64,000 nucleotides of DNA from Planctomycetales bacterium 10988 (GTDB lineage Bacteria; Planctomycetota; Planctomycetia; Pirellulales; Pb10988), in contig CP043547.1 of NCBI GenBank assembly GCA_009664345.1, forward strand, positions 6,538,709 to 6,602,708. Direction: 5' to 3'. How positions within the stretch are numbered: the first letter of the stretch is position 1; every line of letters starts with the position of its first letter. Shown here piece after piece: positions 8,212 to 29,772 of the stretch. Below the pieces are notes generated by a model. That model saw only the letters and a program-made list of their open reading frames with translations, was not told the DNA's origin and searched no databases. The position numbers and the translations under genes were made by a program.

Positions 8212-9636
8212 TTATTCTTCCTCGACCGCAGTGATTTCTTCAACTGCAGCTTCCGGTTTTTGCCAAGGGATCAATCCCCCTCGTTGGACATGTGCTTGAA
8301 AGAGTTGACCCATTTCGCGGGCGATCTTGGGGGCCTTTTCCATAAGATCGTTCTCTTCTTGAGGGTCACGTTTCAAGTTATAAAGTTCCAATGGCGAGAA
8401 CGGGGTGTTTTGCAGAATTTTCCACTCCCCTTGGATGACGGCATCAATGGTTTTCCCCAAGAATTTCCCTCCCCCTTCACGACGGATAAAATAAAGCGTC
8501 CGTTCGGGCTTAGGCTGTTCTTTTCCTAGCAAGGTTGGCAAGAAGGAAACCCCATCAATCTCGGGATCGGCTGGAGCCTGAGCCGCTTCCAACAAGGTTG
8601 GATAGATATCCATCGTGAGTACCGATCGGTCCGTGGTACTGCCGGCTTCGATTTTTCCTGGCCAAACCGCACAGCCCGGCACACGCACCCCCCCTTCATA
8701 CATGGAACCTTTTCCGGATCGCCAGGGACCATTATTTGCTCCAACATTGACCTGACCCCCATTGTCCGAGGTGAAGATCACCATCGTGTTTTCTTCCAAC
8801 CCTGCTTTCTTGAGGGTATCGAGAAACCTCCCGATTCCGGCATCCATATGTTCAATGAGGGCGACCAGCGATGCCCGTTGGTCGTCGATCTCGGGTTGGC
8901 GTTGTTTGACCTTTTGCACCCAATCCTCTGGCGGTTGGATGGGCGTGTGGGGGGCATTGTAAGCAAGATAAAGGAAAAACGGCTGCGGCTGATCGGCTCG
9001 GGATTTGACATATTCACAGGCCCAATCGGTGAAGACCTCGGTGGCGTGCCCTTCCGGCTCAATCACTTCCTCATTCAACCGCATGTAGTTATTGCCGAAC
9101 CGGAGATGGTCATAATAGTCGTCCATCATATCTCCGAGGAAGCCATGAAAATGGTCGAAGCCGCGATCATTAGGGCGATTGGGGGCTTCCAAGCCGAGAT
9201 GCCATTTCCCAACGATTCCCGTATGATAACCCGCTTTTCCCAAAGGTTGGGCGATTAACGTGGCGTCTTTGGCCAGATATCCCCAGTTACTCTCTGGATG
9301 CGTGCGAATCACCCCGGGGACCCCGACGCGTTCAGGATAACAACCCGTCAGCAAGGACGCCCTCGTTGGAGAACATACACAACAGTTGGCATAAAAGTTT
9401 TCAAACTTCATTCCTCGGGAAACTAATAGATCAATCTCCGGAGTCAGCAAGTCCTCCGCTCCGTAGCTACTCAAATCGCCGAAGCCAAGATCATCCACCA
9501 GGATCACGACCAGATTCGGTGGGGATTCCGCGGAGAGGGAGCTTGTCGAAAGTCCACTCCAGAAGAGAGCGAATCCTCCAAGGATTACGCTGATTTTTGC
9601 AAGGAAACTCAAAGCTTTAGGTCGTCTGTTTTGCAT
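8212..9636 (-). CDS. Secreted sulfatase (arylsulfatase A type)
   Basis: This 474-residue sulfatase has an N-terminal hydrophobic signal segment ending near residue 36. It has the metal-binding VDDLGFGDLSSYG and the formylglycine motif CSPTRASLLTG, with the modifiable Cys at residue 88. Further family blocks are VGKWHLG, APHTPIQPP and FTSDNGGQVNVG. It would hydrolyse sulfate esters, probably on an algal or animal polysaccharide, in the periplasm or outside the cell. It needs a formylglycine-generating or anaerobic maturation enzyme, which is not in this window. A second sulfatase gene lies directly upstream on the same strand; the two could be co-transcribed, but a strong hairpin separates them. 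Confidence 0.93.
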   Translation of the reverse strand: MQNRRPKALSFLAKISVILGGFALFWSGLSTSSLSAESPPNLVVILVDDLGFGDLSSYGAEDLLTPEIDLLVSRGMKFENFYANCCVCSPTRASLLTGCYPERVGVPGVIRTHPESNWGYLAKDATLIAQPLGKAGYHTGIVGKWHLGLEAPNRPNDRGFDHFHGFLGDMMDDYYDHLRFGNNYMRLNEEVIEPEGHATEVFTDWACEYVKSRADQPQPFFLYLAYNAPHTPIQPPEDWVQKVKQRQPEIDDQRASLVALIEHMDAGIGRFLDTLKKAGLEENTMVIFTSDNGGQVNVGANNGPWRSGKGSMYEGGVRVPGCAVWPGKIEAGSTTDRSVLTMDIYPTLLEAAQAPADPEIDGVSFLPTLLGKEQPKPERTLYFIRREGGGKFLGKTIDAVIQGEWKILQNTPFSPLELYNLKRDPQEENDLMEKAPKIAREMGQLFQAHVQRGGLIPWQKPEAAVEEITAVEEE

Positions 9637-9703
9637 CGCTATCGATCCTTCACGAAACCGAGGGGGGAGTCTGGGAGGTCATCGCTAGACAGCATAAACC
9701 ATG

Positions 9704-9738
9704 AAGGACGATTCGAAAACCAGCAACGAATCGTCCTT
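9704..9738 (-). terminator. Hairpin between the two sulfatase genes
   Basis: A perfect 12-base-pair inverted repeat (AAGGACGATTCG / CGAATCGTCCTT) with an 11-base loop lies about 50 bases after the stop of the upstream sulfatase gene (9790-11211). No T-run follows it, so it may attenuate or protect the transcript end rather than act as a full intrinsic terminator. Confidence 0.5.
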
Positions 9739-9789
9739 CAAAGTGATTCGAGGATGGAGCGATCTTTCCTCGATTGATATTAACTAGGC

Positions 9790-11211
9790 TTAGAGTTTCT
9801 CAATGGGTTCCGCTTTTTGTGGAGTCGCATCGGCCTCTACTTCCTCTTTCCAGCGGCGGAGCGATCGTGTCATGTGATTCACCCGATCCGGGTATTCTTG
9901 GGCAAGATTGTTCGATTCGCCTAAATCTTTGCCGAGATGATAGAGTTCCGGTTCCGAATTTCTCTTTGGATAGAGGAGTTTCCAAGGCCCTTTTCGCATG
10001 GCCATCTTCCCGTTGGTGGTCCAATAGATGGCTCGATTGGGCAATTTTTCTTTGGTAAAGAGGTGGGATTTGAGGGAGATCCCATCCAATTGATGGCCTT
10101 CTGGAACTTTCGCCCCGGCGATTTCCAGTATCGTCGGCATGAGATCAATGCTGATAGCGGTCGCTTTGGAAACGGTGCCGGCTTCGATCTTCCCCGGCCA
10201 TTTCGCCATCGCACAGACGCGATGCCCTCCTTCCCAGAAGGTTCCCTTCTTTCCGCGAAGCGGGCCGTTATTGGAATCCGCCGTGCCGCCGTTATCTGAA
10301 AGGAAGAAGACAAAGGTATTCTCTTCTAGGTTAGTCTCTTGAAGCGTTTGCATCACCTGACCGACGGTTTTATCCATCGCTTCGATCATCTCTTTCAAGG
10401 CCATTTGGGAATCGGTACGCGAGGGACGAATTTGTCCCTTCTTCCCTTCCGCACGAACAGGCACGTCGTTCGGTCCTTGATAGGGAGTATGAGGGGCCTC
10501 GTGGGCGATGTATAAACAGAAAGGTTGATCTTGGTTGTCCTTAATAAATTCACAGGCGTAGTCCCCAATTAAGTAGGTAGAATAACCCGGCTCATTTTCA
10601 ATTCGCAAACCATTCCACCAGTCGAGCACGCCCATCCGATCAACGTGCGAATGATAATCGACATTGCCGCTGACATATCCTCGAAAGAGATCAAACTGAT
10701 GGTGAACGGGATTGAATTCTTTCCGATAACCTAAATGCCATTTTCCAATGCAAGCGGTGGCATAGCCGGTTTCTTTGAGAACTTGAGAAAAGGTGATTTC
10801 ACTGGGGTAAAGACCATGATGGCGATTTTGCTGCGGATCGGCAAAGATTACCCCATCCACTCCGGCCCGCTGTTGATACCGTCCCGTCAGCAGCCCCGCC
10901 CGCGTTGGACTACACACGGCTCCACTCGAATGAAAGTCGGTGAACTTCATCCCCTCTGCGGCCAACTGGTCTAGATTTGGGGTCTTAATCACCTCATTTC
11001 CATAACAAGACAAATCCCCATAGCCCAAGTCATCCGCCATAATCACGATGAGGTTGGGTTGAGGGGGTGAATCTGCTTTTGTAGGCAGAATCATGACTGA
11101 GGAGAAAACGAGTCCTAAAACGAAAACAAGGAATGTGTTTAATTGGTGTCGAAAAGGAACTCGAAAGAAAACGGTCGGGGATGGAATGTGCGAGCGTCGA
11201 GGGATCATCAA
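9790..11211 (-). CDS. Secreted sulfatase
   Basis: This 473-residue sulfatase has an N-terminal extension and a hydrophobic signal segment (about residues 27-46). It has the metal site MADDLGYGDLSCYG, formylglycine motif CSPTRAGLLTG (Cys100-Arg104), IGKWHLGY, EAPHTPYQGP and LSDNGGTADSNNGPLRG. It is clearly diverged from the neighbour at 8212-9636, so the two are not a recent duplication and probably act on different sulfated sugars. Another ATG at codon 2 is equally possible. The product is predicted to be exported to the periplasm or surface. Confidence 0.93.
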   Translation of the reverse strand: MMIPRRSHIPSPTVFFRVPFRHQLNTFLVFVLGLVFSSVMILPTKADSPPQPNLIVIMADDLGYGDLSCYGNEVIKTPNLDQLAAEGMKFTDFHSSGAVCSPTRAGLLTGRYQQRAGVDGVIFADPQQNRHHGLYPSEITFSQVLKETGYATACIGKWHLGYRKEFNPVHHQFDLFRGYVSGNVDYHSHVDRMGVLDWWNGLRIENEPGYSTYLIGDYACEFIKDNQDQPFCLYIAHEAPHTPYQGPNDVPVRAEGKKGQIRPSRTDSQMALKEMIEAMDKTVGQVMQTLQETNLEENTFVFFLSDNGGTADSNNGPLRGKKGTFWEGGHRVCAMAKWPGKIEAGTVSKATAISIDLMPTILEIAGAKVPEGHQLDGISLKSHLFTKEKLPNRAIYWTTNGKMAMRKGPWKLLYPKRNSEPELYHLGKDLGESNNLAQEYPDRVNHMTRSLRRWKEEVEADATPQKAEPIEKL

Positions 11212-20751: not shown

Positions 20752-22098
20752 ATGACGCACGCATCTGGAACACAACGAGTCGTCTGTTTCGTCATTGATC
20801 ATCTGCAAGCCGGATACCTGGGGACCTACGGAAATACCTGGTTTTCCACTCCTCAAATCGACCGATTGGCGAGTGAGTCGGTCGTTTTCGATCAGGCGTT
20901 TCTGAACAGTCCCCATCTACAAGATTTCTACCATGCCCTGCAAACCGGCAATCCATTTGCCTTTTCGAAACAACCCAATCACACCGAGAAACTTCTGCCG
21001 ACTTGGCTGAGTGAACAAGGGGTTCAAAGCTGTTTCTTGACCGATGAGACGAAACTTCGAGAAGCTTCTCCTTGGGCGGATGCTTGGCAGAATTGGATTG
21101 AAGTGGACCTGACCGCCTCGACCGCGCCGGCTGAATCTTGGGAAGAGACCGAGCTTTCCCAATTCTTCGCTATTGCGACCGAGACCCTCTTGGAACAAGA
21201 CCGGGAAGCTGGAGACACGCCGCTCCTGTATGGGGTTCATTGCGGGGCATTAGGCCGCTGTTGGGATGCCCCGCTTGCCGATCGCGAGGCCTTCCTGGAC
21301 GATGCCGAAGATGAAGAGGAATTGATTTCCGATGTCTTCGAAGCCCCTTCTTTTCACTTTGCCAAAGACTTCGATCCCGAGGAACGCCTCGCCTTGCAAC
21401 GGGCGTACGCTGCCCAAGTTCGAGTCTTGGATTCGTGCCTCGGCTACTTTGTCGATACGATTCAACAACTGGATCAACAGCGTCCAACGCTCTTTCTTTT
21501 CCTCAGCCCTCGCGGTTATCCACTGGGCGAACATCAAGCGGTAGGCATGCCGGCAGGTCTTCATGAAGAGTTGATTCATCTCCCTTGCTTCCTGCGGTTG
21601 CCCGCGGCAGAGAAAGCCCTGACCCGCTCGGATCAATTCATTCAACCGCACGACTTCGCCGCGACGATCGCCGAGGCCTTGGCTCCTTCCGAAAAGCACT
21701 TTTTGGAAAAAGGGATCAATCTCCTTCAAGCTTTGGAGCGTCCCGAGTACGAACTCCGCGATCGCGTCTATCTCCAACAAGCCGAGAACGAAGCCTCCCT
21801 GCGAACCGCCGGCTGGTACTATCACGAGACTCGTCAAAACGTCGAAGCATCTGTATGCGATCCGCAGCCGACTTCCCTTGCCGGCGATATCACCCCGCCT
21901 GACCGAAGCGACGATCCCCCGATACGTGAACTCTATGTCAAACCGGATGATCGCTGGGAGGTCAACGATACTCTCGACCGGGCACATGAGGAAGCCGAGG
22001 CCATGCAAGAACTTGTTTTAGAGCATCAGGCCTATCTCCGAGGAGAGGGAAACTCCTTGAGAAAACTACCGGAAATCTTGCGGATTGAAGTATTTTAA
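20752..22098 (+). CDS. Sulfatase-superfamily protein lacking catalytic residues
   Basis: This 448-residue protein keeps the sulfatase layout (VVCFVIDHLQAGYLGTYGN, then STPQIDRLASESVVFDQAF). The formylglycine motif is gone: where C-x-P-x-R should stand it reads NSPHLQDFYHAL. The paired metal aspartates are reduced to IDHL, and the later S-D-N-G block reads LSPRG. No signal peptide is visible, so it is probably cytoplasmic, unlike the true sulfatases here. It is most likely a pseudoenzyme with a binding or structural role. It sits between the ECF operon and the tandem giant paralogues on the same strand. Confidence 0.75.
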   Translation: MTHASGTQRVVCFVIDHLQAGYLGTYGNTWFSTPQIDRLASESVVFDQAFLNSPHLQDFYHALQTGNPFAFSKQPNHTEKLLPTWLSEQGVQSCFLTDETKLREASPWADAWQNWIEVDLTASTAPAESWEETELSQFFAIATETLLEQDREAGDTPLLYGVHCGALGRCWDAPLADREAFLDDAEDEEELISDVFEAPSFHFAKDFDPEERLALQRAYAAQVRVLDSCLGYFVDTIQQLDQQRPTLFLFLSPRGYPLGEHQAVGMPAGLHEELIHLPCFLRLPAAEKALTRSDQFIQPHDFAATIAEALAPSEKHFLEKGINLLQALERPEYELRDRVYLQQAENEASLRTAGWYYHETRQNVEASVCDPQPTSLAGDITPPDRSDDPPIRELYVKPDDRWEVNDTLDRAHEEAEAMQELVLEHQAYLRGEGNSLRKLPEILRIEVF

Positions 22099-22237: not shown

Positions 22238-25200
22238 ATGACCCCCTCTGACTTGCCGGAATTTCCTTTCCAGCCCCGCCCGAATCGCAACGCGGGACCT
22301 TCCGAATCGCAACCCTTTCCTAAGTCGGGCCTCACTCCCAAGCCCAGACGAAGGGCAACGCAGCAAACGCCTCAAGCTCCTCCAAGCCCAAGGAAAGCCC
22401 CAGGGCCGCAACCCTCAGCAACTCCTCAGGCTCGACAAAGACCTGCCGGACCTTCGAACCTGCCGGATCCTTCCTTCGTCCCCCATCAGGAGAAAAGAAA
22501 TATATTCAGCGGGGCTTTTGACCTCGTTGACTGGATGAAAGGGCTCCTCCGCGGCAGATCAAAGATTATTGTAACTACCCTGGTGATTCTCTTCATTCTT
22601 TGGAGTGGAATCTTCGGCGTTTATAGCAGACTCGCCTGGATATTTCCTAGTCTCCGACCGTCCATTTCGAAATCCTTCACCCGTCCCGATACCAGCGAGA
22701 AGAAATCGTCCGAGACCAAAGAGATCGTCATTACTCCTGAGATGCGTCAGCAGGCAATTGACCTTGGGATACGCCCGACCGATGAAGAGATCTGGGAAGA
22801 AATTCGGGAGATAGAAGCTGAAAATGATAGGAAAAGGGCCGAAGATCCAGTCACTCCTGTTATGTATAATACTCATTCAAATCGAGAGGATTTTCTCGAT
22901 AAAATTCATGAGAAATATCTTCAAAATCGTAACGATTTTGAAGCCATCACGTTTTTGGAAAAATTCAATCCTCTGGCTGAGAAACTGTTTCAGGAATATG
23001 CTCGTCACGGTCAGACAGAAGTTTTTTCTTCTTTGAGGGACTCAATCCTTGAGGATTCCAGGCAAGTAGTGGAGAATTATCGTGAAGAATTACTAAAGGA
23101 GGTGGAACGACTCCCAGATGCCTCAAGTTCTCAACGACTAAGAAACTTTCAACGACTAAGAAACTTTGGAATTGTTCCATCCAGAATAAACGACTCGACA
23201 GAGGCTCCGTCAATAAAGTTTTACCCTGTGCTTTACGAATATGGCAAGATCATCGAAATGCTCGCCCTTGGAAAGGAAGTACCTGAATTAGCAATTTCGT
23301 GGCAACCAGACTCTGAGCCGGGAATTCTATCTGCCAAAGTTAGTTTTCCAGTACTTCAGGGGTATAGTTATGAGACACCGGCCATGCAGGAAATATGGCT
23401 TTATAAACCGATGGGAGATCATGAAGATCATTCTTTGTCAACGGTTCTGATCCCGAGTTCCTCAGCCACGGATTCGCACGGTGGTGCCTTAAAGGAAGCC
23501 CATCGAAAGGAACATTTGCCCTTTGTAAAGGCAGGTTTTCTCGTTGCGGCCTATAGTGTTACCGGAGCATTACCAGAGGAATATTATGCAGATAAGAAAA
23601 GAGAAGAGCTTGATTCTAACAAAGAAGAAGAACTATCCTACCTAGATGCTCAATTGAGTTTTTCTGATTCGGATAATGGGGCTCTTAATGGTCAAAAGAC
23701 ATTAGCCTTTCTCAAAAAGAATCTCTCTGAAATTCATCACCGAAAGGTATATTCTGCTGGGATCGGTTACGCTGCAACCATCGCAGCGAGTTTAGAAAGA
23801 AATATCTACGGAAAGAATCCCGAAGTAAGAGGAGTCTTAGCCTTTTCTCCCCATTTTTGGAACAGCGGCGCCCAGGAGCAGGCTGAAGAAGATGATCGTC
23901 TAGCTAGGGCTAGTACTCGCCGATATATACTCAAGAACGACCTACTCGGTATCACCGGTAATATTGATCTGTGGGTGAGAAGGGATCGGAGTCTCTTTTT
24001 TTATTATTCCCCTGACGATCCTCGGTATGAAATTGTTGATTTTGATTTGATTCAGCGTGAGCTGGGGAAACGCTCAGTACGCACGATCCACTCTTATAGC
24101 CCTCAACCTAGCGACGATCTTTCGATTTTTTTTGAAGGAGTTGATAAGGGAATTCAATTCTTGAAATACCTCGATGAGATACTCGTTTTACAGGACGAGA
24201 AAGAGAGAAAGAACTATTTAAGCAACTTCGAGCCAAAAGATTTTCCTGTCGTTCCTTGGCTCGATCACACCAATCGAGATTCAGAAACTCTTTTGGAGGA
24301 ATTTCGAAGCCAGCTCTCTCCGAGTAGTCCGTTACAATCATGGCCATTGCCCGATCTTCTCCCGCTCTACGACACCGCCAATCTTCATGAAAAAAGCCAA
24401 GCCATCCCGAACCACTTGGGATTGGAGTACTGGCATCGGGCAAAAGAGTTTTCGGAAGACTCGAATCCATCCGAGGAATCCGCTGATCGTCTGACCTTTT
24501 CCAAAGAAATGTCACTTTCTGTAGATTATGCGGAACGAGTCGTCTTTTCGAGAAAAGCTTCTTCTCCGTTTATCGCTCTTTTAGCGAAAAGATGGGAAGA
24601 AGACGGAAGCAACCTCTACTATCAAGTTTGGAACCTGTCCGACTCCAAGATGATGGTAGATTCCTCAGTGAAGCTCCATGCGAGGCTCGAGACGACAACG
24701 CTACTGAATCATGGAACCCTGTTAGCTGGAACTCCAGGCTATAGTTATGATAAGCCCAAGCCAGTCAAGTTCTTGCTTGATGTAAGGTCCGGAGAGGTAG
24801 AATTATTCCAGGATACAGAAGCGTTCGATTCCGCTGTAGATGAAAAAAGTCAAACAAATCCGTTTCGAGAGAGTAGATATTCCTTTCGTTTCGAAAGTCC
24901 TTATGAAAGCAAAGATATACTTCAAGATTTTCAAGTACATGCTTTCGACAGAAATACTGAGGAGCAGATCGGGTTATTTAACGTTCCTGCTTTCGAGAGA
25001 ATGACTTTCGAAGAAAAAAATTGGATAAGCGTTTCACCAAACAGAAAATGGTTAGCTGTAGGATCTACGGCATCCACTGAGGGGCAATACGAACTTGTTA
25101 TCGCATACTGGAATTTGCAAGACGGTCAATTTCATCGGTATTTACGCTTCAAAATTCCCAGTTATGCAGACTCTGCTATCTATAGCTACCAAGGAAAGAT

Positions 25201-25540
25201 GCTTGAATGGCTTCCGAATAACCAAGGCTGGTTATTTGCAGGCTGTTTTGTGATCTATTTACGACATAACGATGATCCTCGTCCTCTCTCTGATTATCCC
25301 GATTGTATTTTGCCTGTGCCAAGTAGTCAGGAATATGACTATTTTGAGCGAAGATTGATCAGTAACGATCAATTGCTTGTGATTGCGGACGGAGAGTCTG
25401 GCGAGGTTCTGGTGCCGTATCCGCTGATGGAGCCTTTGTTTTTGAAAGAGTCGTTTGATCCGGATGCTCCGCCTACCGAGGTGGTCGAAGAGGAGGAAAC
25501 GGCCGAGGTAGAGGAGGTTCCGCTGGAAGCGATCCCTTAA
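22238..25540 (+). CDS. Large membrane-anchored protein of unknown function, paralogue 1
   Basis: This is a protein of about 1,100 residues with four parts. It has a Pro/Arg-rich N-terminus, one hydrophobic segment (about 108-130) and a hydrolase-like middle with YKP...TVLIPSSSATDSHGGALKE and EHLPFVKAGFLVAAYSVTG. The nucleophile-elbow position reads GIGYAAT where a serine would be expected, then FFYYSPDDPRYE follows. The long C-terminal beta-rich region ends in FHRYLRFKIPSYADS and YPDCILPVPSSQEYD. The next gene is a paralogue sharing every part. I start it at ATG 22238; the frame opens at 22175. An 18-base tandem duplication lies inside (23132-23167). The DNA is AT-richer than the paralogue. 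Function is unknown. Confidence 0.8.
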   Translation: MTPSDLPEFPFQPRPNRNAGPSESQPFPKSGLTPKPRRRATQQTPQAPPSPRKAPGPQPSATPQARQRPAGPSNLPDPSFVPHQEKRNIFSGAFDLVDWMKGLLRGRSKIIVTTLVILFILWSGIFGVYSRLAWIFPSLRPSISKSFTRPDTSEKKSSETKEIVITPEMRQQAIDLGIRPTDEEIWEEIREIEAENDRKRAEDPVTPVMYNTHSNREDFLDKIHEKYLQNRNDFEAITFLEKFNPLAEKLFQEYARHGQTEVFSSLRDSILEDSRQVVENYREELLKEVERLPDASSSQRLRNFQRLRNFGIVPSRINDSTEAPSIKFYPVLYEYGKIIEMLALGKEVPELAISWQPDSEPGILSAKVSFPVLQGYSYETPAMQEIWLYKPMGDHEDHSLSTVLIPSSSATDSHGGALKEAHRKEHLPFVKAGFLVAAYSVTGALPEEYYADKKREELDSNKEEELSYLDAQLSFSDSDNGALNGQKTLAFLKKNLSEIHHRKVYSAGIGYAATIAASLERNIYGKNPEVRGVLAFSPHFWNSGAQEQAEEDDRLARASTRRYILKNDLLGITGNIDLWVRRDRSLFFYYSPDDPRYEIVDFDLIQRELGKRSVRTIHSYSPQPSDDLSIFFEGVDKGIQFLKYLDEILVLQDEKERKNYLSNFEPKDFPVVPWLDHTNRDSETLLEEFRSQLSPSSPLQSWPLPDLLPLYDTANLHEKSQAIPNHLGLEYWHRAKEFSEDSNPSEESADRLTFSKEMSLSVDYAERVVFSRKASSPFIALLAKRWEEDGSNLYYQVWNLSDSKMMVDSSVKLHARLETTTLLNHGTLLAGTPGYSYDKPKPVKFLLDVRSGEVELFQDTEAFDSAVDEKSQTNPFRESRYSFRFESPYESKDILQDFQVHAFDRNTEEQIGLFNVPAFERMTFEEKNWISVSPNRKWLAVGSTASTEGQYELVIAYWNLQDGQFHRYLRFKIPSYADSAIYSYQGKMLEWLPNNQGWLFAGCFVIYLRHNDDPRPLSDYPDCILPVPSSQEYDYFERRLISNDQLLVIADGESGEVLVPYPLMEPLFLKESFDPDAPPTEVVEEEETAEVEEVPLEAIP
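23132..23167 (+). repeat. Exact 18-base tandem duplication in a coding region
   Basis: The 18-mer CAACGACTAAGAAACTTT occurs twice head to tail (23132-23149 and 23150-23167). It encodes QRLRNF-QRLRNF and is in frame, so the reading frame is preserved. The paralogue downstream has no such repeat. Confidence 0.9.
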
Positions 25541-25683
25541 TGACAGTGAGTTTCAAGGGCATTCCGCCCGTTATTGAATCAACCATCAAGCATTCGTGGC
25601 AGTTCCCACGGATTCGCTCTTCTTGAAAAAGTCGATCCAGAGTGATCCTTTTCTTTGTTCCTTTTTCGCATTCTGGACCAGCC

Positions 25684-28600
25684 ATGGAACCTTCAGATTT
25701 TCCGGACTTTCCCCAAAAACGCCAACCGAAGAAGAACTTTCCCGGCCCAAAACCAAAGCAGGGACCGTTTCCGAAACCGGAGGCCCCACTCTTTCAACCT
25801 TTCGGTTCCGAAGGGGGGGCTGCTCCCAAAAAGCCGCAGCCTCCATCTCCTGGAACCCCACCCCCGCGAAGACCGATGCCGGGGCAACAACCTCCCGGAG
25901 CGGCCAGAAAAGCTCCACAATCGCGAGCCGCCTCTCCGCAACATCAGCCTCAGATGCCTGAGGAATCCTATGCGAAGTCACAACTGTTTCAGTGGGGAAT
26001 CATTGCCTTCGCAGGGGTCTTCCTCACGGGGGCTGTTGCAATGGGAATGATTTTCGCCATCGGCCTTCTCTCGGGAGGAAGTTCAAACGATACGCCTTCG
26101 ACCCTCGTTCAGAACTCTAATCAAGAGTCAAGTGAAGAGAAGCCTTTTCAAAAAAACGCCGCTTTCCGCCAGTTATCCGAGGAACAAGTCCGAATCTACA
26201 CCGCTCTGTTTCACCGTGCGATCTATCAAGAGCCAGTCGCTCTTGTGAGTATTGCATTGGAACTTCCGATGCGGGGGCATTCGCATCTTTCCCCCAGGGA
26301 GCGATCCAAGATTCTCGAAGGTTATGACGATCTGCTCGAAAAATATTCCTCCGAGGCCTCCGAGCGTACAGAAAAGTTGTTCAAACGCCCAAGCCCGACC
26401 CGTCCTTCCGAGCCGCGACGTCCCGAACCGCTCGCCGATTCGCAAAGGCCCCCCTCCTCGCGACCGGCTCCACCTAGTATCCCCAAGGTCGAGCGGGCAA
26501 GGTCCAAGGAAGATCAGGTTCCTAAGATCGACATTAAGCGGAATCAATCCGAAATCCGTGGGGCGGACTTGGCTGAAATCACCTTTAAGACTAAGCCGTA
26601 TGCCATTTCTCATTCCTTCGAACAGGAAATTTGGATCTATCTCCCTCATCGGGTGGATCGTGATAAGCCGCTCTCTTGTGTCTATATTCCTGCTTCCGAT
26701 ATGACTTACATGCATGGTAGCCGGCTCAAGCCGAAGCATCGAGCGGAACATCTTCCTTTCGTCGAAGCGGGGTTTGCGGTCATCGCGTTCAGTGTTTCGG
26801 GGCAAGTCCCGGAGGTTTACCAAGACCAAATCACTCCGACATGGCTTGACCAGAGCCTTCCTCCAGGGGATTGGCTTTCCGAGGTGTATGCCGAATATTC
26901 CAAGGTCAACTACGGCTTGCATAACGCGGAAATCGCGAAATTGTTCGCCGAAAAGAATTTGCCAAAGATCGATGAAAAGCAGCAATATACCGTCGGATTT
27001 GGCTTCGCCGCGAACTTGGCCTTTGCCATTGCGAAGGAGCAACGCCTTCGCGGCTGCCTGTTATATTCACCAACTCTCTCGCTACAAGATCGAATTCGCG
27101 GCTTGGACAGTATCGTGGAGTTGCTCGATAAGGTCGAAGATTTCGACTCGAAGGTTACGCATCCCTATTCGGACCTTGATCCCATGGAGTCCTTGACTTC
27201 CTATGGGATACCAGGAACGTACCTCTATGTTTCTCCGGATGACCCTGCTGCGACCCCCTCATTCATCGATCCTTTCGTCAAAAAAATGCGAAAAGACAAT
27301 CGGCAAATCACTTTCAAGCTGGCGTCGGCTCCGGGAAATCAAGCGGAGCTATTCGACAAGGCCATTCCCGAAGGGGTTGAGTTCCTCCAAGCTCTTAATC
27401 GACAAATCCCATTGGAGGAGTTCAATCTCGCCCCGGAAGAGATCCTCGGGGAAAAGCTTGAACAGAGCTTTGCCGCCAATCTGACCCATCAACGAGACGT
27501 AAAGGCTCGGCTGAGCGGACAACTGCGGAGAGAGATCCCTTCGGTCAGTCCCCTCCGGATTTGGCCGGTTCCTGATCCGTTGCCGTTGAAATACACCGAT
27601 CATGGGAAAGAGACAAACCCCGCCTATCCTTATCCCGCCGGCATTGAAGCTTGGAATCCAACGCAAACAGAGCCTTACGAAGGGGCGGCAGACGAGCCTC
27701 GCTCAATCCGTCCGGTGGCGAAAAACCTTCTGATCGAGATGAAGCAGTTCGATTACGTCGTCTTCCCCGAGGACCCTAGTTCCCCTTATGTCGCCTTTAT
27801 AGGAAGGCCCGCTTCGAACTCGCTTTCCGGACTCCGGGGTGATGGGACTGCCTACGAGGTCTGGGATAGGCAAAGGAATTGGAGGGTCGCCGTTGGGTCG
27901 TCCGATGTGAAGCTGGATTTCAAGACGTGCGTGCTGAGCGATAATGGGAGAGAGTTAATCGGATATCCAGAACTCCTTTCTCAAAAATCCTCGATCGTGA
28001 TGATCGAATTAGGTTCCAGCGTAGTGAATCAGTTTACCTTTCCTGCTCAGCAAGGTTACCGCCTGGATGCCTCCAATCCACTTGTGTTCTGGGGAGACGA
28101 TTCCATCGGAGTCCTCCTGCCACCTCCGGATTTCGGCGTTGAGGAAACACATTGTGTTTTGATCAACAAAAGAACTAAGGAACTCGATGTCTATCGCCTG
28201 CCGGGCCGCAGTGAAACGAGGGCGGTCAAGGCCATCGAGCCGAAGCGAGGTTGGATTGCCCAACGGAGGGATGTGCGGGTCACGGGCCTCAATGATAGTC
28301 AGAAGATTGTGGAACTCTATGATGTCCAGGAAGAGCGGCAGTTCGCTCAACTCCTGCTCCCGAATTTTGGCGACTTGGGACATGTCGAATCCGAAGGGCT
28401 TCAATTCTCCCATGATCGAAAGTGGCTTGCTTATGCCGTGAAGATGAGCGGAGACGTCCTGTCGGATTCAGGTGGGGAGCTGATCGTTGTTTACTGGAAC
28501 CTCGAAACTGGCGAGCTCCATCGTTACCTTCGTTTTTATCTGCCTGAGTACCTCCGCCACTCCATTGATCGATATCAAGGTCCGTTTATTCAATGGATGC

Positions 28601-28860
28601 CAAACGACCGAGGTTGGCTCATCTCGGGATGCTACTTGGTTCATTTTCGCCACAATGGAGATTCTCGGAATGTCGTCGATTATCCCGACTGCATTTTGCC
28701 GGTGCCGAAAGAGCAGGAACTCCATTTCCCCGCACGAAAGTTTGTCGGCCAAGGCCAAATCCTGCTGGTGTACGGCGACGAAGAAAAGCGGCTCACGGTT
28801 TATCCGATTGTCGATAATTTGCAGATTCATCATCCTTTTGAGCCGGAAGCCAACAAATGA
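25684..28860 (+). CDS. Large membrane-anchored protein of unknown function, paralogue 2
   Basis: This protein of about 1,058 residues begins MEPSDFPDFPQKR and continues with a Pro-rich segment, one membrane segment (about 103-132) and a second Pro/Arg-rich stretch (about 235-275). The hydrolase-like middle has EIWIYLPHRVDRDKPLSCVY, EHLPFVEAGFAVIAFSVSG and YLYVSPDDPA; the nucleophile elbow reads GFGFAAN. A C-terminal, probably propeller-like region contains LHRYLRFYLPEY and YPDCILPVPKEQE. The frame opens at GTG 25642, but ATG 25684 matches the paralogue's start (MTPSDLPEFPFQ). The missing serine suggests both proteins bind rather than hydrolyse. No family name can be given. Confidence 0.82.
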   Translation: MEPSDFPDFPQKRQPKKNFPGPKPKQGPFPKPEAPLFQPFGSEGGAAPKKPQPPSPGTPPPRRPMPGQQPPGAARKAPQSRAASPQHQPQMPEESYAKSQLFQWGIIAFAGVFLTGAVAMGMIFAIGLLSGGSSNDTPSTLVQNSNQESSEEKPFQKNAAFRQLSEEQVRIYTALFHRAIYQEPVALVSIALELPMRGHSHLSPRERSKILEGYDDLLEKYSSEASERTEKLFKRPSPTRPSEPRRPEPLADSQRPPSSRPAPPSIPKVERARSKEDQVPKIDIKRNQSEIRGADLAEITFKTKPYAISHSFEQEIWIYLPHRVDRDKPLSCVYIPASDMTYMHGSRLKPKHRAEHLPFVEAGFAVIAFSVSGQVPEVYQDQITPTWLDQSLPPGDWLSEVYAEYSKVNYGLHNAEIAKLFAEKNLPKIDEKQQYTVGFGFAANLAFAIAKEQRLRGCLLYSPTLSLQDRIRGLDSIVELLDKVEDFDSKVTHPYSDLDPMESLTSYGIPGTYLYVSPDDPAATPSFIDPFVKKMRKDNRQITFKLASAPGNQAELFDKAIPEGVEFLQALNRQIPLEEFNLAPEEILGEKLEQSFAANLTHQRDVKARLSGQLRREIPSVSPLRIWPVPDPLPLKYTDHGKETNPAYPYPAGIEAWNPTQTEPYEGAADEPRSIRPVAKNLLIEMKQFDYVVFPEDPSSPYVAFIGRPASNSLSGLRGDGTAYEVWDRQRNWRVAVGSSDVKLDFKTCVLSDNGRELIGYPELLSQKSSIVMIELGSSVVNQFTFPAQQGYRLDASNPLVFWGDDSIGVLLPPPDFGVEETHCVLINKRTKELDVYRLPGRSETRAVKAIEPKRGWIAQRRDVRVTGLNDSQKIVELYDVQEERQFAQLLLPNFGDLGHVESEGLQFSHDRKWLAYAVKMSGDVLSDSGGELIVVYWNLETGELHRYLRFYLPEYLRHSIDRYQGPFIQWMPNDRGWLISGCYLVHFRHNGDSRNVVDYPDCILPVPKEQELHFPARKFVGQGQILLVYGDEEKRLTVYPIVDNLQIHHPFEPEANK

Positions 28861-28890: not shown

Positions 28891-29772
28891 ATGCTAAGAA
28901 GGATGGATATGCAAAAAGTACTTTTAGAAATTGGGTGGATGATCCTCGTGATCGCCTGTCCGATGAATCTCTTTGCTGCCGGGTTGCCTGAGATTTCTGC
29001 CTCGGTTGGCAAAGAGGGAGAGAATCGGCCGAAAGATGTTTTTATCGTGCAGGGGATGCTCAATCATGTTCCCTATCGTAGTGGCGGCCCTAAGGAACCC
29101 CTTCCAATCGATGGAATCCTTGGTTCGAATACGATCGCAGCGATCGAACGTTTTCAAACCATTCAATTGGGTTTTCGAGATGGTCTTGTTGAGCCGGAGC
29201 AGCGAACCATCAAGCGATTGCAAGAGTTTTTTCTCTTCGCCGCCCAAGATCGTTCTGGTCCAAAAATCGCCTGGGGTGCCCAAGTCACCGGGCCGTTCAA
29301 GCAGAAAGTCTTGCAAGTGGCGACGGAACTCGGCCTCGACCCGAATCATCTTATGGCGGCTATGGCCTTCGAAACGGCTGGGACTTTTAGCCCAGCGATT
29401 AAGAATGCCGCCGGGAGCGGAGCGACGGGACTTATTCAATTCATGCCGTCTACGGCCAAAGGGCTCGGCTTGACGACTCAGGCACTTCAACGAATGAACG
29501 CGGTCGAGCAAATGGATATCGTTAAAAAGTACTTTTTGCCTTATCATCAACGGATTGAGACCTTGAGCGATCTGTACATGGCCATTCTATATCCAGTCGC
29601 GATTGGAAAACCGGAGGAATATGTCCTCTTTGGTCAAGAAAAATCCCCACGGACTTATCAAATGAATGCCGGCCTGGATCGTGACGGAGATGGCAATGTC
29701 ACGAAGGCCGAAGCCGCCGCGAATGTCCAAGCTTCTCTTGATCGCGGACTTCAACCGGAAAATCACGGCTAG
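28891..29772 (+). CDS. Lytic transglycosylase-like protein with EF-hand loop
   Basis: This 293-residue exported protein has a signal peptide (ending near residue 30) and a peptidoglycan-binding-like helical domain (VFIVQGMLNHVPY, IDGILGSNTIAAIERFQTIQLG). It is followed by a lysozyme-like domain with AMAFETAGTFSPAIKNAAGSG and GLIQFMPSTAKGLG; the Glu in FETAGTF is the likely catalytic acid. The C-terminus has one calcium-binding loop, LDRDGDGNVTKAE. It should bind or cleave the glycan strands of peptidoglycan in the periplasm. GGAGG sits seven bases before the ATG. It follows the giant paralogue by 30 bases, so co-transcription is likely. Confidence 0.85.
   Translation: MLRRMDMQKVLLEIGWMILVIACPMNLFAAGLPEISASVGKEGENRPKDVFIVQGMLNHVPYRSGGPKEPLPIDGILGSNTIAAIERFQTIQLGFRDGLVEPEQRTIKRLQEFFLFAAQDRSGPKIAWGAQVTGPFKQKVLQVATELGLDPNHLMAAMAFETAGTFSPAIKNAAGSGATGLIQFMPSTAKGLGLTTQALQRMNAVEQMDIVKKYFLPYHQRIETLSDLYMAILYPVAIGKPEEYVLFGQEKSPRTYQMNAGLDRDGDGNVTKAEAAANVQASLDRGLQPENHG

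What the first reader, a model, noticed from the sequence alone, without database searches (positions are those of the whole stretch)
22238..28860. Tandem pair of ~1,050-1,100-residue membrane proteins with a broken hydrolase centre
Seen: two adjacent genes share the same start (PSD-PEF), Pro-rich region, membrane segment, hydrolase-like middle and C-terminal beta region. The nucleophile position reads GIGYAAT or GFGFAAN where G-x-S-x-G is usual. They lie in one strand run between the sulfatase-like pseudoenzyme and a lytic transglycosylase, and I know no named family. Inference: a paired surface or envelope complex, perhaps recognising polymers rather than cutting them.
Basis: partly seen in the sequence, partly recalled or inferred. 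Interest (0 to 1): 0.65.

Follow-up and report, generated by a model that had tools for sequence, protein, structure and literature searches.

The report
Paired dead hydrolases with propeller domains
Two neighbouring planctomycete genes encode membrane-anchored copies of an ordinary esterase/peptidase-like enzyme that have lost their cutting machinery but kept the enzyme's fold and an attached propeller domain, so they probably bind rather than cut; a third copy with an intact active site sits elsewhere in the same genome.

Summary
A (22238-25540, 1100 aa) and B (25684-28860, 1058 aa) are tandem paralogues (27% identity, E 1e-83): Pro-rich tail, one membrane helix, alpha/beta-hydrolase domain, C-terminal WD40-type propeller. 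"No named family" needs correction. A third paralogue, C, lies 2 Mb away in the same genome with an intact GHSSAG...DD...GGH site; it matches Pfam Peptidase_S9 and ties A and B to a family present in 79 of 398 sampled genomes of the class. In 56 active members the oxyanion glycine, H-S-S, Asp and His are invariant; A and B changed all but the Asp, the Ser becoming Gly. The hydrolase part of a predicted model of B matches acylaminoacyl peptidases (Z 21). On the tree A and B are sisters, next to C, and triad loss needs five changes. In a sister family another dead copy is under purifying selection (dN/dS about 0.26). Best explanation: a pseudoenzyme pair working like DPP6/DPP10, as periplasm-facing binding scaffolds. 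The cluster with pseudo-sulfatase and lytic transglycosylase is not conserved. The hydrolase-propeller architecture was found only in this genome. Partner and ligand are unknown.

The parts
22238..25540 (+). Protein A, 1100 aa: catalytically dead alpha/beta-hydrolase plus propeller, single-pass membrane protein
25684..28860 (+). Protein B, 1058 aa: tandem paralogue of A, same architecture
22238..22543 (+). A: N-terminal Pro-rich tail (22% Pro, net positive), inferred cytoplasmic
22544..22642 (+). A: membrane helix, aa 103-135
   Evidence: hydropathy peak 2.54
23273..24184 (+). A: alpha/beta-hydrolase domain
   Evidence: profile match
23759..23779 (+). A: former nucleophile elbow GIGYAAT (GHSSAGT in active kin)
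24008..24022 (+). A: SPDDP, retained catalytic-acid position
24101..24115 (+). A: PQPSD, catalytic His replaced by Asp
24308..25471 (+). A: C-terminal WD40-type beta-propeller
25244..25306 (+). A: Cys1003 to Cys1023, the only two Cys of A, both matched in B (Cys983/Cys1003), absent in C; candidate disulfide
25684..25983 (+). B: N-terminal Pro-rich tail (28% Pro), inferred cytoplasmic
25984..26079 (+). B: membrane helix, aa 101-132
   Evidence: hydropathy peak 2.27
26479..27408 (+). B: alpha/beta-hydrolase domain
   Evidence: model mostly at pLDDT 80-97 with dips to 55-65, Z 21 to acylaminoacyl peptidase
26995..27015 (+). B: former nucleophile elbow GFGFAAN
27328..27342 (+). B: APGNQ, catalytic His replaced by Asn
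27541..28854 (+). B: C-terminal WD40-type beta-propeller

Best explanation
A and B are a tandem pair of pseudoenzymes. An ancestor resembling paralogue C of the same genome (Pro-rich tail, one membrane helix, S9/dienelactone-hydrolase-like domain, WD40-type propeller) was duplicated. The copy lost its oxyanion glycine, nucleophile and His, then duplicated again to give A and B. The dead hydrolase fold and the propeller now most likely serve as a periplasm-facing binding scaffold or regulatory subunit, as the inactive S9 proteins DPP6 and DPP10 do. Shown: homology, architecture, loss of catalytic residues, phylogenetic order. Inferred: topology, that the loss came before the A/B split, that the two proteins act together, and that they bind a ligand or partner (unknown).
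For: Paralogy of A, B and C. C keeps GHSSAG, DD and GGH, and matches Peptidase_S9 at 4e-10. A+B are sisters (100/99), and A+B+C form a clade (100/93). Gly263, His353, Ser354, Ser355, Asp431 and His463 (C numbering) are invariant in 56 active members; A has S, I, G, Y, D, D and B has D, F, G, F, D, N. Scaffold positions Glu279, Pro282, Gly287, Gly297, Gly325 and Gly352 are kept in both. The B model has a well-predicted hydrolase fold, Z 21.2 to 4hxg_J. The profile of the C-terminal domain matches WD40 proteins at 1e-17. A-B identity is highest in the C-terminal part of the propeller (38%, against 24-31% elsewhere), and the only two Cys of A are matched in B, which suggests that constraint has moved there. 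A-B differences by codon position (0.52/0.31/0.69 there) show constraint on the protein. Triad loss needs five changes on the tree, and another dead copy is held by purifying selection. DPP10: inactive S9B protein, type II membrane protein, propeller plus alpha/beta-hydrolase, Ser to Gly in GKGYGG, a Kv4 channel modulator (PMC4350108).
Against: No species close enough to this genome is held, so selection on A and B themselves could not be measured, and A has a very long branch (2.8 changes per site). No partner or ligand is known. The propeller was modelled with only moderate confidence, from an alignment in which the WD40 rows were misplaced. Joint action rests only on adjacency and shared motifs. 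An unrelated chemistry in the altered pocket cannot be excluded.
Confidence: 0.7

Rival explanations
1. A and B are enzymes with a rearranged, non-Ser catalytic centre (for example using the retained Asp pair and new residues), acting on a substrate related to that of C.
For: Catalytic-acid DD kept in both (SPDDP). The hydrolase fold is kept in the B model.
Against: Nucleophile, oxyanion glycine and His are all replaced, with different residues in A and B at several of these positions. The two columns flanking the nucleophile became hydrophobic or aromatic (I/Y, F/F).
Confidence: 0.12
2. A and B are decaying copies on their way to loss, without function.
For: Fast branches (A 2.78, B 1.07). 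In genus g15 of a sister family, remnants of the active and of the dead copy are decaying (G078 and G097). The low GC3 of A (0.43) sets it apart from its neighbours.
Against: Two frames of about 1,100 codons without a stop or frameshift; 38% A-B identity and a matched Cys pair in the C-terminal part; second codon positions least changed between A and B.
Confidence: 0.08
3. A and B form a dedicated functional module with the pseudo-sulfatase 20752-22098 and the transglycosylase 28891-29772, a polymer-recognising envelope complex.
For: Same strand and adjacency (gaps 139, 143 and 30 nt); three degenerate hydrolases in a row.
Against: In 15 of 20 order loci the pseudo-sulfatase is instead beside a GHL10-like protein of about 1,300 aa, which in this genome lies elsewhere. 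No A/B or transglycosylase homologue in the 20 loci. C is not clustered with them.
Confidence: 0.1

Closest known systems
Pfam PF00326 Peptidase_S9 / PF01738 DLH-like alpha/beta-hydrolases (reached through paralogue C and its kin)
   Same: Fold, nucleophile-elbow position, catalytic-acid position and scaffold glycines; C and the active kin scanned pass the Peptidase_S9 cut-off
   Different: A and B match no Pfam or NCBIfam model themselves; Ser, His and oxyanion glycine are lost; the propeller is C-terminal, not N-terminal as in classical S9 enzymes
DPP6/DPP10 (inactive S9B, Kv4 channel subunits; PMC4350108)
   Same: Single-pass N-in membrane protein, alpha/beta-hydrolase plus propeller, nucleophile Ser to Gly (GKGYGG in DPP10, GIGYAA in A)
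   Different: Reverse domain order; WD40-type propeller; A and B also lost the His, which DPP10 keeps; no channel partner known; inactivation was independent (inference)
Tandem active + dead hydrolase pair of G014 (L023 9631-11034 and 8281-9585) and the dead copies of G093, G329 and G176
   Same: Same hydrolase family, catalytic residues and oxyanion glycine lost in a paralogue
   Different: No propeller of this kind; separate inactivation events on the tree; G014 keeps an active partner next door

Membership tests
Peptidase_S9/DLH-like alpha/beta-hydrolase superfamily (as a fold) | alpha/beta-hydrolase fold | tested here: met
   B model: Z 21.2, rmsd 3.0 over 246 residues to 4hxg_J; family profile A3 matches A and B at E 1e-81 and 1e-89 (A and B are rows of A3, so this is partly circular)
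Peptidase_S9 (Pfam PF00326) | Match to the Pfam model at its cut-off | tested here: not met
   No Pfam hit for A or B at E 1; paralogue C does match, 40 bits against a cut-off of 22.6
Active S9/DLH-like serine hydrolase | Ser-Asp-His triad and oxyanion hole | tested here: not met
   Ser to Gly, His to Asp/Asn, oxyanion-region Gly to Ser/Asp; Asp kept
Prolyl oligopeptidase architecture (S9A/S9B) | N-terminal propeller capping a C-terminal hydrolase | tested here: not met
   The propeller follows the hydrolase in A, B and C
WD40-type beta-propeller (C-terminal domain) | Sequence and fold match to WD40 propellers | tested here: met
   A/B/C profile finds planctomycete WD40 proteins at up to 1e-17; Foldseek match to WDR91 at E 5e-7. 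The model is moderate there and blades were not counted
DPP6/DPP10-like channel subunits | Descent from S9B DPP4-like peptidases and modulation of Kv4 channels | not testable with these tools
   Used only as an analogy for mode of action; the reversed domain order argues against membership

The most novel reading that the evidence does not exclude
A and B are subunits of one heteromeric periplasmic receptor in which two dead hydrolase domains bind the ligand class that C still hydrolyses and pass the signal through their Pro-rich cytoplasmic tails: a bacterial sensor built from a pseudoenzyme pair plus an active paralogue.
Probability: 0.15. Interest if true: 0.7.

Novelty: new variant of a known kind. 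Interest (0 to 1): 0.42.

Why it matters
The best-studied inactive S9-type hydrolases are animal proteins (DPP6/DPP10). Here one planctomycete hydrolase family has lost its catalytic residues in extra paralogues about five separate times, in the window as a tandem pair with a reversed domain order. It offers a bacterial system, with an active paralogue as a control, to test what dead alpha/beta-hydrolases are selected for.

Tried and rejected
(1) Direct family look-up of A and B in Pfam and NCBIfam: nothing. (2) AlphaFold of full-length A with three sequences: mean pLDDT 44.6, not used. (3) The second alignment, A4, placed the WD40 rows across both domains, noticed after submission; the hydrolase part of the model is well supported, the propeller part only moderately. 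(4) Conserved cluster with sulfatase and transglycosylase: rejected. (5) Fusion of this hydrolase with this propeller elsewhere: none in 397 order and 398 class genomes; the WD40 hits found there lie on other contigs or far from the hydrolase hits (compare). (6) Plasmid and viral collections: no relatives. (7) Promoter and terminator scans: no more sites than in shuffles. (8) No second species of the window's family is held, so pair conservation in close relatives and dN/dS of A and B could not be tested. (9) Two profile searches with the full-length alignment failed on the server.

Full report
Observation. The two frames are real and intact: A, 22238-25540, 1100 aa; B, 25684-28860, 1058 aa. 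They share 27% identity over 821 columns (E 1e-83) and the same layout: a Pro-rich, net-positive N-terminal tail of about 100 residues; one strong membrane helix; an alpha/beta-hydrolase-like domain; a beta-rich C-terminal domain of about 400 residues. A long, positively charged tail before a single helix suggests N-in topology, with hydrolase and propeller in the periplasm (inference; no signal-peptide program was at hand).

What it is. A and B alone match no Pfam or NCBIfam model. The key was a third paralogue, C, at G000:C1:4497.4-4499.6 kb (L004, 937 aa), with the same tail, helix, hydrolase and C-terminal domain but intact GHSSAG, DD and GGH motifs. C matches Peptidase_S9 (4e-10), with weak WD40 propeller hits in its C-terminal part. 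Its hydrolase domain is mostly 35-44% identical to a family of planctomycete hydrolases found in 29 of 247 sampled genomes of the order and 79 of 398 of the class, with single loci in genomes labelled Armatimonadetes, Lyngbya, Obscuribacterales and Alphaproteobacteria. One locus is shared between the named collection (Pirellulaceae, L012) and the same-order genomes (L053), so the window's order is that of Pirellulaceae (inference).

How dead. Across 56 active members the oxyanion-region Gly263, His353-Ser354-Ser355, Asp431 and His463 (C numbering) are invariant; the set was chosen to hold Ser and His, so for those two the invariance is partly by construction. A reads Ser, Ile-Gly-Tyr, Asp, Asp; B reads Asp, Phe-Gly-Phe, Asp, Asn. 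Only the Asp survives. Scaffold positions such as Glu279, Pro282, Gly287, Gly297, Gly325 and Gly352 are kept in both. The predicted model of B (residues 270-1057) has a well-predicted hydrolase domain with Z 21 to acylaminoacyl peptidases, and a propeller of moderate confidence. The C-terminal profile of A, B and C finds WD40 proteins at E 1e-17.

History. A careful tree puts A with B (100/99), then C (100/93), against 63 others. Loss of the catalytic residues needs five changes on that tree: A+B; the dead copies of G014 and G093; one in G176; two in G329 (one of which keeps its His). In G014 the dead copy lies next to an active one; in G093 the dead copy is whole and no active one was found; in G097 and G078 only fragments remain. 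The two whole dead copies of G014 and G093 differ with NG86 dN 0.35 and dS 1.35, a ratio of 0.26 (active pairs 0.14-0.25), so that dead lineage is held by selection, with the caution that dS is near saturation. For A and B no close relative is held. Their mutual constraint is visible only indirectly: second codon positions are least changed, and the C-terminal part of the propeller is the most alike (38%), with a Cys pair (A 1003/1023, B 983/1003) that makes up all the cysteines of A and is missing from C.

Surroundings. The neighbouring sulfatase-like gene is degenerate too, but its homologues in 82 of 118 order genomes are a story of their own: the 11 aligned lack the CxPxR site, and in 15 of 20 loci it lies beside a GHL10-like protein of about 1,300 aa, which in this genome lies elsewhere. 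None of the 20 loci has a homologue of A, B or the transglycosylase near it; two weak sigma-factor matches and one weak PDZ match lie kilobases away. C is surrounded by unrelated metabolic genes.

Mechanism. Best reading: membrane-anchored pseudoenzymes whose dead hydrolase and propeller present binding surfaces to the periplasm. The closest working analogue is DPP10, an inactive S9B protein with one membrane helix, a propeller and an alpha/beta-hydrolase, in which Ser is replaced by Gly (GKGYGG); it modulates a channel rather than cutting (PMC4350108). The domain order is reversed here and A and B also lost the His, so this is a likeness, not membership. Ligand, partner and joint action are not shown.

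Verdict. A real, well-founded pseudoenzyme pair; a new variant of a known kind, of moderate interest.

Noticed in passing
window 20752-22098 and L118-L128, L129-L148: Order-wide conserved pseudo-sulfatase: hits in 82 of 118 order genomes, almost always one per genome; the CxPxR site is replaced (NSPHLQDFYHALQTG here, SPDLAAQY... in kin) in all 11 homologues aligned. In 15 of 20 loci it lies beside a GHL10-like protein of about 1,300 aa. Possibly more interesting than the given pair.
   Followed up: partly
L149 (G000:C1:1407620-1411465): The GHL10-like partner of the pseudo-sulfatase exists in the window's genome but not beside it: 5.15 Mb apart by contig coordinates.
   Followed up: partly
L023 8281-11034: G014 (same order) has a tandem active + dead pair of the same hydrolase family with zinc-ribbon N-termini.
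   Followed up: yes
L012, L013, L024: Active members of the hydrolase family are fused to other C-terminal parts: HEAT repeats (L012, L013), and a weak CsgG-like match (L024).
   Followed up: no
window 22238-25540: A has a lower third-position GC (0.43) than B (0.57) and other neighbours (0.52-0.56).
   Followed up: no
window 8212-11211: Two ordinary full-length sulfatase genes lie about 10 kb upstream of the pseudo-sulfatase.
   Followed up: no
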